From Thamnocephalis sphaerospora (Eukaryota; Zoopagomycota; Zoopagomycetes; Zoopagales; Sigmoideomycetaceae): a stretch of 45,735 bases of DNA. The stretch is from positions 1 to 45,735 of the forward strand of contig KZ992476.1 of NCBI GenBank assembly GCA_003614735.1, given 5' to 3'. Under the pieces are notes generated by a model. It was not told where the DNA came from and did not search any database. It saw only the letters and a program-made list of their open reading frames with translations. Position 1 is the stretch's first letter, and every line of letters starts with the position of its first letter. Made by a program: the position numbers and the translations under genes. Below, one piece after another: positions 41,875 through 43,009 of this stretch.

Positions 41875-43009
41875 ATGGCATTCGGCAACCGTGGTGGTGG
41901 CGGCGGCTTCCGTGGTGGTCGCGGTGGCGGTGGCGGTTTCCGCGGTAAGTAGAGCGGCAGAGTCCATGGTCGTGCCTGCGCCGGCCGCGTGCCATCTAAA
42001 AAGCACCGAGTTGACGACTGATGTACTTGATGTCGCTGTTTGCGCTGGATTTAGGCCGTGGACGCGGTGGTAGCGCGGGCTTCTCTGCCGGTCCCCCGGA
42101 CTCTGTGGTCGGTATGTATTCTTGCGCACTGACGCCGCCAGCAAAGACAGTCTGTTGACCATCGTCTGGCGTAGAAATGGGCGCCTTCAAGCACCCGTGC
42201 GAGGGTGAGATGGTGTGCAAGTCTATCAACACGAAGATCCCGTACTTCAACGCACCCATCTACCTCGAGAACAAGACACAGATTGGCAAGGTTGACGAGA
42301 TCCTTGGCCCGATGAATGAGGTCGTATCCTTTACCGTAGACTGAGCGCTGGCTATGCCACTGTTGGCCTCGTATGTGTCGCATCATGTCTAGCGTGCCCC
42401 TTGACTTTTCGTCTTTTGCTGCTGCAGTACTTTACCGTCAAGCTGCAGGACGGTGTTGTGGCCGGCTCGTTCAAGGAGGATGACAGGGTATACATTGCCC
42501 CAGACAAGCTGCTGCCGCTGGAGCGTTTCCTGCCCAAGCCGAAGCTGACCAAGGGTGTGTGGCCATGGAACGCGTGTCTGGCGTGGTCTTTGCGTGTGTG
42601 TGCTGGTATGCTGACAATCACGTACCTATTTATAGTGGAGAAGTCGGCTCGCGGTGGCCGTGGCGGTCGCGGTGGTGGTAAGTGTGCCAACGATAAAGCG
42701 ACGTGGGCTTGGCATTCGGCATGGCTAACCTTTGCACGAACAGCCCGCGGTGGTGCTGGTGGTTTCCGTGGTGGCCGTGGCGGCGCTGGCGGTTTCCGCG
42801 GCGGTCGTGGCGGTGCTGGTGGCTTCCGTGGTGGCCGCGGTGGTGCTGGCGGCTTCCGTGGTGGCCGTGGCGGTTCTGGCGGCTTCCGTGGCGGAGCCGG
42901 TGGCTTCCGTGGTGGCCGTGGTCGTGGTATGTAGCCGAATAAGCTGGCAACAGTGAGCAGCAGCGCAGAGGCTAACTGAGGCGATGTATGCACTGTAGGC
43001 TCGTGGTAA
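41875..43009 (+). CDS. GAR1: H/ACA snoRNP protein Gar1
   Basis: Seven exons (41875-41944, 42055-42111, 42175-42323, 42428-42554, 42636-42677, 42744-42926, 42999-43009) encode 212 residues. Gly/Arg-rich arms flank a central domain: EMGAFKHPCEGEMVCKSI, PYFNAPIYLENKTQIGKVDE, ILGPMNEVYFTVKL and KLLPLERFLPKPK. It releases product RNA from H/ACA pseudouridine synthase particles in the nucleolus. The third intron, inside NEV|YFTV, starts GTATCCTTT, a U12-type donor; placing the donor after the valine codon is forced by the conserved E-V/F-Y/F-F-T/S wording. The last exon codes only for part of a glycine, then SW and the stop. The C-terminal arm is made of near-identical 33-bp repeats. Confidence 0.95.
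42324..42427 (+). other. Candidate U12-type (minor spliceosome) intron in GAR1
   Basis: The 104-bp intron begins GTATCCTTT and carries CCCTTGAC at 42398-42405, close to the U12 branch consensus TCCTTRAC. It ends TGCTGCAG. The proposed branch A (42404) lies 23 nt before the final G. Its donor differs from nearly all others here, which follow GTRNG. Confidence 0.6.
42745..42925. repeat. 33-bp tandem repeats coding for GGAGGFRGGRG units
   Basis: About five units of 33 bp, differing mostly at third positions, followed by a shorter derived unit. They make up the C-terminal GAR arm of Gar1. Confidence 0.9.

What the first reader, a model, noticed from the sequence alone, without database searches (positions are those of the whole stretch)
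42324..42427. U12-type (minor spliceosome) intron signature in GAR1
The donor GTATCCTTT matches the U12 consensus, and CCCTTGAC 23 nt before the AG fits the U12 branch element but for one base. Conservation of Gar1 (NEV followed by YFTV) independently forces the donor to this position. The other introns here use GTRNG or GCAAG donors with CTAAC/CTGAC branches. As far as I know minor introns are documented in early-diverging fungi and are largely lost in Dikarya, so this bears on both lineage and splicing.
Basis: partly seen in the sequence, partly recalled or inferred. Interest (0 to 1): 0.85.

Follow-up and report, generated by a model that had tools for sequence, protein, structure and literature searches.

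The report
Minor-spliceosome intron in fungal GAR1
A gene from a small mould that lives on other fungi carries an intron of a rare second class, and the mould's genome holds dozens of similar introns along with parts of the special machinery that cuts them out.

Summary
GAR1 intron 3 (42324-42427) has the donor GTATCCTTT, a CCCTTGAC branch element whose A lies 23 nt from the 3' end, and a junction fixed by Gar1 conservation; the public gene model uses the same junction. The genome is Thamnocephalis sphaerospora (Zoopagales, Zoopagomycota), an early-diverging fungus. U11 and U6atac snRNAs score above Rfam cut-offs, and a U11/U12-35K gene is present. U12 and U4atac were not found with Rfam models, nor 65K with the human query. 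The intron is one of many: TATCCTTN{41,71}CCTTRAY matches 89 places against 3 for the reversed-pattern control. Of 74 distinct fetched matches 73 are preceded by A or G, about half each, and 26 of 30 tested junctions lie inside a restored Pfam domain. A second one, AT-AC, lies in the window at 39143-39255. Minor introns in non-Dikarya fungi are known, so this is a new member of a known kind. The abundance in Zoopagales, the G-rich branch element and apparently misread public AT-AC gene models are the useful additions.

The parts
41875..43009 (+). GAR1 gene (H/ACA snoRNP subunit), seven exons, six introns
   Evidence: Spliced model; Pfam Gar1 106.3 bits; public T. sphaerospora GAR1 P0001 from a 45735-base contig
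42324..42427 (+). GAR1 intron 3, U12-type, GT-AG, 104 nt, phase 0
   Evidence: junction fixed by NEV|YFTV conservation
42324..42332 (+). U12-type 5' splice site GTATCCTTT
   Evidence: genome-wide set; UCCUUU can form six Watson-Crick pairs with AAAGGA of this genome's own U6atac (sequence)
42398..42405 (+). Branch element CCCTTGAC, inferred branch A at 42404, 23 nt before the 3' end of the intron
   Evidence: among 37 GT-start candidates (this one included) the distance runs 13 to 32, median 22
42426..42427 (+). 3' splice site AG (GCTGCAG|TAC)
39143..39255 (+). Second U12-type intron of the window, AT-AC, in a pentatricopeptide-repeat gene; branch element CCTTGAC at 39224-39230
   Evidence: PPR_2 95.7 bits when spliced AT-AC (CAC at 39255) against 77.6 bits for the AT-AG alternative at 39252

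Best explanation
GAR1 intron 3 of Thamnocephalis sphaerospora is a genuine U12-type (minor) intron of the GT-AG subclass. U11 and then U6atac would pair with the donor GUAUCCUUU, U12 would pair with CCCUUGAC, and the minor spliceosome would join GTC to TAC so that Gar1 reads NEV-YFTV. It is one of a large set of minor introns, about half of the strict set beginning AT, in a genome that keeps at least U11, U6atac and the U11/U12-35K protein. Shown: sequence signals, junction consistency, genome-wide enrichment, snRNA and 35K genes. Inferred: that this RNA is spliced by that machinery in the cell, and that U12, U4atac and 65K exist but are divergent, intron-split or missing from the assembly.
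For: Junction and motifs. U6atac at C139:12974-13129, 38.0 bits over a cut-off of 33, with AAAGGAGAGA, CAAGGA, GTGTTG...CAACAC, an upstream TATAAATA and a terminal T run. U11 at C89:1450-1601, 58.9 bits over 39, with AAAAGGG near its 5' end and the Sm-site-like AATTTTT. Ordinary U6 is separate, at C468, 80.3 bits. U11/U12-35K pieces at C41:46326-47148; joined pieces match human 35K at 167.9 bits, against 71.5-74.6 bits for chains holding human U1-70K. The donor-branch pair is found 89 times against 3 in the control. 73 of 74 distinct fetched matches are preceded by A or G. 26 of 30 spliced peptides carry an above-cut-off Pfam domain across the junction. In the sequence held, GTATC (0.152) and ATATC (0.116) are not enriched upstream of CTRAY branches (base 0.144), while GTAAG (0.254) and GTAGG (0.239) are.
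Against: No RNA evidence. U12 and U4atac were not found with Rfam models. A U12 core pattern gave 7 hits against 10 in its control, none U12-like. A human 65K query found only two genes that I read as RNPS1-like and U1A/U2B''-like. CCCTTGAC would also serve as a U2 branch site (YTRAY). GAR1 intron 3 is phase 0, the less common phase here (16 of 75 by best open frame). Unconstrained duplex energy does not single out this donor: 1556 of 3000 random 12-mers are as good with U11, 285 of 3000 with U6atac, 193 with both.
Confidence: 0.93

Rival explanations
1. An ordinary U2-type intron whose donor happens to read GTATCCTTT; TTGAC is used as a U2 branch site, as GTTGAC probably is in GAR1 intron 2.
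For: TTGAC fits YTRAY and GAR1 intron 2 has GTTGAC; a pyrimidine-rich stretch follows the branch.
Against: The donor has C, not G, at +5, while the other five GAR1 introns have G. The exact donor/branch pair recurs 89 times against 3 in the control at intron-like spacing, half of the fetched strict set with AT starts, in a genome with U11, U6atac and 35K. GTATC donors show no clear excess upstream of CTRAY (0.152 against base 0.144).
Confidence: 0.05
2. The minor-class RNAs and introns belong to contaminating host DNA (Thamnocephalis grows on other fungi, some of which have minor introns), not to this genome.
For: Mycoparasite sequenced with a single-cell pipeline and co-assembly (PMC6784888, passages read).
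Against: The intron is on the window contig, whose GAR1 is filed under T. sphaerospora. The contig of L073 (22793 bases) also carries a protein so filed. Matches are spread over contigs from C1 to C585. GC of the U6atac, U11 and 35K loci is 58.0, 56.9 and 59.1% and their tetranucleotide correlation with the window 0.93, 0.88 and 0.88, inside the range of the 89 loci of 2500 bases or more (mean 0.87, s.d. 0.06; these three included).
Confidence: 0.01
3. The intron was born recently by local duplication: its start GTATCCTTTACCGT resembles the start of exon 4, (G)TACTTTACCGT.
For: Shared 9-mer CTTTACCGT in register, the longest such match among 75 introns.
Against: Local alignment of the two stretches scores 21, reached by 695 of 6491 other window segments and by 167 of 2000 shuffles with the donor motif kept: not significant.
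Confidence: 0.03

Closest known systems
Minor (U12-type) introns of Basidiobolus meristosporus and Rhizophagus irregularis (Larue and Roy 2023, PMC10639083; start of abstract and passages read)
   Same: Same intron class in early-diverging fungi; Basidiobolus is placed in Zoopagomycota there and has the 35K protein closest to this one (63% identity)
   Different: The passages give 249 (0.554%) and 205 (0.272%) minor introns for these two, and the main text does not name Thamnocephalis or Syncephalis. Their counts use annotated introns; I did not measure a density. Here 67 of 76 strict branch elements read CCTTGAY rather than CCTTAAY
U12 introns of Rhizopus oryzae and Phycomyces blakesleeanus (PMC2846911, passages read)
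   Same: AT-AC and GT-AG minor introns with minor snRNAs in zygomycete-grade fungi
   Different: About 4 and 20 introns as summed up by PMC10639083; here 89 strict matches (86 distinct strings) in a 14.46 Mb assembly. The methods differ, so this is only a rough contrast
Human minor spliceosome (U11/U12 di-snRNP, U4atac/U6atac)
   Same: U11, U6atac and 35K found
   Different: U12, U4atac and 65K not detected with the models and query used

Membership tests
U12-type intron | 5' splice site RTATCCTT | tested here: met
   GTATCCTTT at 42324-42332
U12-type intron | Branch element near (T)TCCTTRAY | tested here: met
   CCCTTGAC at 42398-42405, one base off TCCTTRAC (consensus recalled); CCTTRAY itself exact
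U12-type intron | Short branch-to-3'ss distance | tested here: inconclusive
   23 nt, longer than the 10-20 nt usual in animals (recalled), but typical here: 13-32, median 22, for 37 GT-start candidates
U12-type intron | Genome encodes U11 and U6atac snRNAs | tested here: met
U12-type intron | Genome encodes U12 and U4atac snRNAs | tested here: inconclusive
   No Rfam match up to E = 10; a pattern for the U12 core found nothing U12-like. Draft assembly and a candidate-limited first look, so absence is not shown
U12-type intron | U11/U12-specific proteins encoded | tested here: met
   35K present, best PDB match is human 35K; 65K not found with the human query; other minor-specific proteins not searched
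U12-type intron | Excision depends on the minor spliceosome in vivo | not testable with these tools
   Needs RNA and snRNA blockade
U2-type intron | Donor GTRNG with G at +5 | tested here: not met
   GTATCC has C at +5; the other five GAR1 introns have G at +5

The most novel reading that the evidence does not exclude
Zoopagales are a minor-intron-rich lineage hidden by annotation: about half of the minor introns begin AT, public gene models misread AT-AC members (the donor ATATCCTT is translated as ISL or ISF), the branch element has shifted to CCTTGAC, and U12 snRNA has changed with it (predicted C for U opposite the shifted base, GCAAGGA instead of GUAAGGA) far enough to escape the Rfam model. 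The pronounced ancestral loss inferred for Zoopagomycota would then be partly an annotation artefact.
Probability: 0.3. Interest if true: 0.62.

Novelty: new member of a known kind. Interest (0 to 1): 0.45.

Why it matters
It adds a mycoparasitic order, Zoopagales, to the fungi with a working-looking minor splicing system, with more candidate introns than were first reported for Rhizopus and Phycomyces. It also points to a concrete reason why surveys built on annotated introns could undercount there: an AT-AC intron in an NR2C2AP-like gene appears mis-spliced in the public T. sphaerospora model, and two Syncephalis models carry residues (ISF) that such a donor would give if translated.

Tried and rejected
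U12 snRNA: Rfam at E <= 0.001 and E <= 10, then the pattern GAGTAAGGAAAANAA with one mismatch (7 hits, control 10). All seven stretches were fetched and looked at; by eye none had an Sm site and structure like U12. U4atac: none up to E = 10.

65K: the two hits are an RNPS1-like gene and a U1A/U2B''-like gene by my reading. Not counted as 65K.

GC-AG idea: a quick count suggested many GCAAG donors, but GCAAG is common by composition and shows no excess against a base rate. Dropped.

Birth by duplication: 9-mer shared with exon 4; local alignment not significant. Dropped.

Duplex energies with U11 were not informative.

Density: not reported. I had no trustworthy total intron count, and the strict motif misses an unknown number.

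Selection to disclose: the 30 peptides were picked by eye from 75 built, favouring recognisable ones. Acceptors had been chosen for long open frames plus a bonus for a pyrimidine before the AG or AC, which favours in-frame joins; AG against AC is unresolved for many AT-start introns. The four misses were SF3A1 by my reading (Surp domain starts at the junction), a Rogdi-like and a MutS-like piece (below cut-off) and CLPTM1 (domain ends before it). Two of the 26 run only three and five residues past the junction (L058, L056), and the window's PPR gene counts through PPR_long. The 76 introns come from gaps 30-102 and leave out four of 80 strings not preceded by A or G and the duplicate locus L033; one of the 76 (L037) had no usable acceptor, leaving 75. 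Of the 89 places (12 distinct strings) were never fetched. Of the 14, only those lying in sequence already held (in the window, L046 and L057) were looked at; the last two are not preceded by A or G.

Full report
What is there. The window is bases 1-45735 of contig C53 of a 14,455,036-base, 594-contig assembly. The best database match to its GAR1 protein is P0001, a Gar1 protein of Thamnocephalis sphaerospora recorded from a 45735-base contig; the next named match is Syncephalis fuscata. NCBI taxonomy puts the species in Zoopagales, Zoopagomycota. Ahrendt et al. 2018 (PMC6784888; passages read) sequenced it with a single-cell pipeline.

GAR1 has six introns. Five have donors of the form GTRNG. 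Intron 3, 42324-42427, has GTATCCTTTACC, a CCCTTGAC element at 42398-42405 and ends GCTGCAG|TAC. The joined reading NEV|YFTV is shared by the public model and, as V then YFTV or FFTV, by the six relatives read. Pfam Gar1 covers the junction. The GT three bases upstream would delete the conserved V.

Machinery. U6atac: 38.0 bits against a gathering score of 33, with the AAAGGAGAGA and CAAGGA boxes, the pairing ends GTGTTG and CAACAC, a TATAAATA upstream and a terminal T run. U11: 58.9 bits against 39, with AAAAGGG near the 5' end and the Sm-site-like AATTTTT. Major U6 sits elsewhere at 80.3 bits. The U11/U12-35K gene at C41:46326-47148 was found exon by exon (63-69% identity in its two best pieces, 45% in a third). 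The joined pieces match human 35K at 167.9 bits and chains holding human U1-70K at 71.5-74.6. In the protein collection the nearest relatives are Basidiobolus (63%) and Syncephalis plumigaleata (59%), followed by Glomeromycota, Umbelopsis, Mucorales and animals. Among the named rows of the best 120 I saw no ascomycete or basidiomycete; 588 matched in all and the rest were not listed. U12, U4atac and 65K were not found. These are real gaps in the case, though a draft assembly, divergent RNAs and intron-split genes can explain them.

Not alone. TATCCTTN{41,71}CCTTRAY matches 89 places (52 forward, 37 reverse; three pairs are identical strings on two contigs, so 86 distinct) against 3 for the reversed pattern. 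The flanking gap ranges 10-40 and 72-102 give 12 and 14 (controls 0), so the excess sits at one intron-like spacing. Of the 74 distinct matches fetched, 73 are preceded by A (37) or G (36), although the pattern did not ask for it. In the wider set of 76 (gaps 30-102), 38 begin AT and 38 GT. Branch elements are CCTTGAC 61, CCTTAAC 8, CCTTGAT 6, CCTTAAT 1. For 37 GT-start introns the branch-to-AG distance is 13-32, median 22, so the 23 nt of GAR1 is typical. By best open frame, 16 of 75 introns are phase 0. Of 30 spliced peptides tested, 26 have an above-cut-off Pfam domain running at least three residues past the junction on both sides (selection described under Tried and rejected). By Pfam name, or my reading of it, they include V-ATPase A, xanthine dehydrogenase, ZPR1, branching enzyme, LSm, PIG-U, PIG-V, gamma-tubulin complex and EAP30/Vps36 proteins.

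AT-AC members and annotation. In a gene that I call NR2C2AP-like (a Rhizopus match carries a label beginning Nuclear receptor; the rest is recalled), splicing ATATCC...CAC on L073, minus strand, gives LQ-AFPLEISDAITRLKI. This aligns without a gap to Rhizopus and Spinellus, and with one or two residues' difference to Zychaea and Dissophora. The public T. sphaerospora model P0241 instead reads LQ-ISLL-ISDA: the first 12 intron bases ATATCCTTGCTA are translated and a GT just inside is used as donor, leaving the model one residue short. Two Syncephalis models read LQ-ISFG... and LQ-ISFF... with extra residues at the same point, which is what ATATCCTTT would give. The Syncephalis part is inferred from proteins only; IS(L/F) could in principle be true coding sequence. 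In the window, a second minor intron at 39143-39255 lies in a PPR gene; AT-AC splicing scores 95.7 bits for PPR_2 against 77.6 for AT-AG.

Ownership. GC and tetranucleotide profiles of the U11, U6atac and 35K loci match the rest, and the introns lie on contigs across the assembly, so host contamination is unlikely.

What is known. Larue and Roy 2023 (PMC10639083; start of abstract and passages read) report minor introns in Basidiobolus and Rhizophagus and infer pronounced loss in the ancestor of Zoopagomycota; their main text has no mention of Thamnocephalis or Syncephalis. Their supplementary data were not seen, so the species may be in their tables. A search for Thamnocephalis with minor spliceosome found no paper, and minor introns with Zoopagomycota found only that one; the library holds open-licence papers only.

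Verdict. It is a new member of a known kind. The surprise is moderate: not the intron itself but how many there are, the half share of AT starts in the strict set, the CCTTGAC form of the branch element, and the way public gene models seem to misread them.

Noticed in passing
window 39143-39255: A second minor intron, AT-AC, in a pentatricopeptide-repeat gene.
   Followed up: yes
L073 (C239), minus strand, donor at reverse-complement position 4741: Public T. sphaerospora model P0241 appears to mis-splice an AT-AC intron; Syncephalis models P0243 and P0245 carry a matching ISF stretch.
   Followed up: partly
window 41875-43009: Public GAR1 model P0001 differs from the model here near exon 1 and after LTK (GVWPWNAS against VEKSARGGRGG); Syncephalis fuscata P0002 has VEKSARGGRGG, so the public intron 4 looks wrong.
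   Followed up: partly
G000 C41:46326-47148 (L094): U11/U12-35K gene split by several introns; no T. sphaerospora protein appears among its best 120 matches (candidates of 0.55-1.75 times the query length only), so it may be unannotated or badly modelled.
   Followed up: partly
G000 C147/C441, C425/C500, C408/C532: Identical pattern matches on two contigs each: duplicated or unmerged stretches in the assembly.
   Followed up: no
window 42324-42337 and 42427-42438: Intron start GTATCCTTTACCGT resembles exon 4 start (G)TACTTTACCGT; unspliced, the frame reads VVSFTVD and stops. Similarity not significant.
   Followed up: yes
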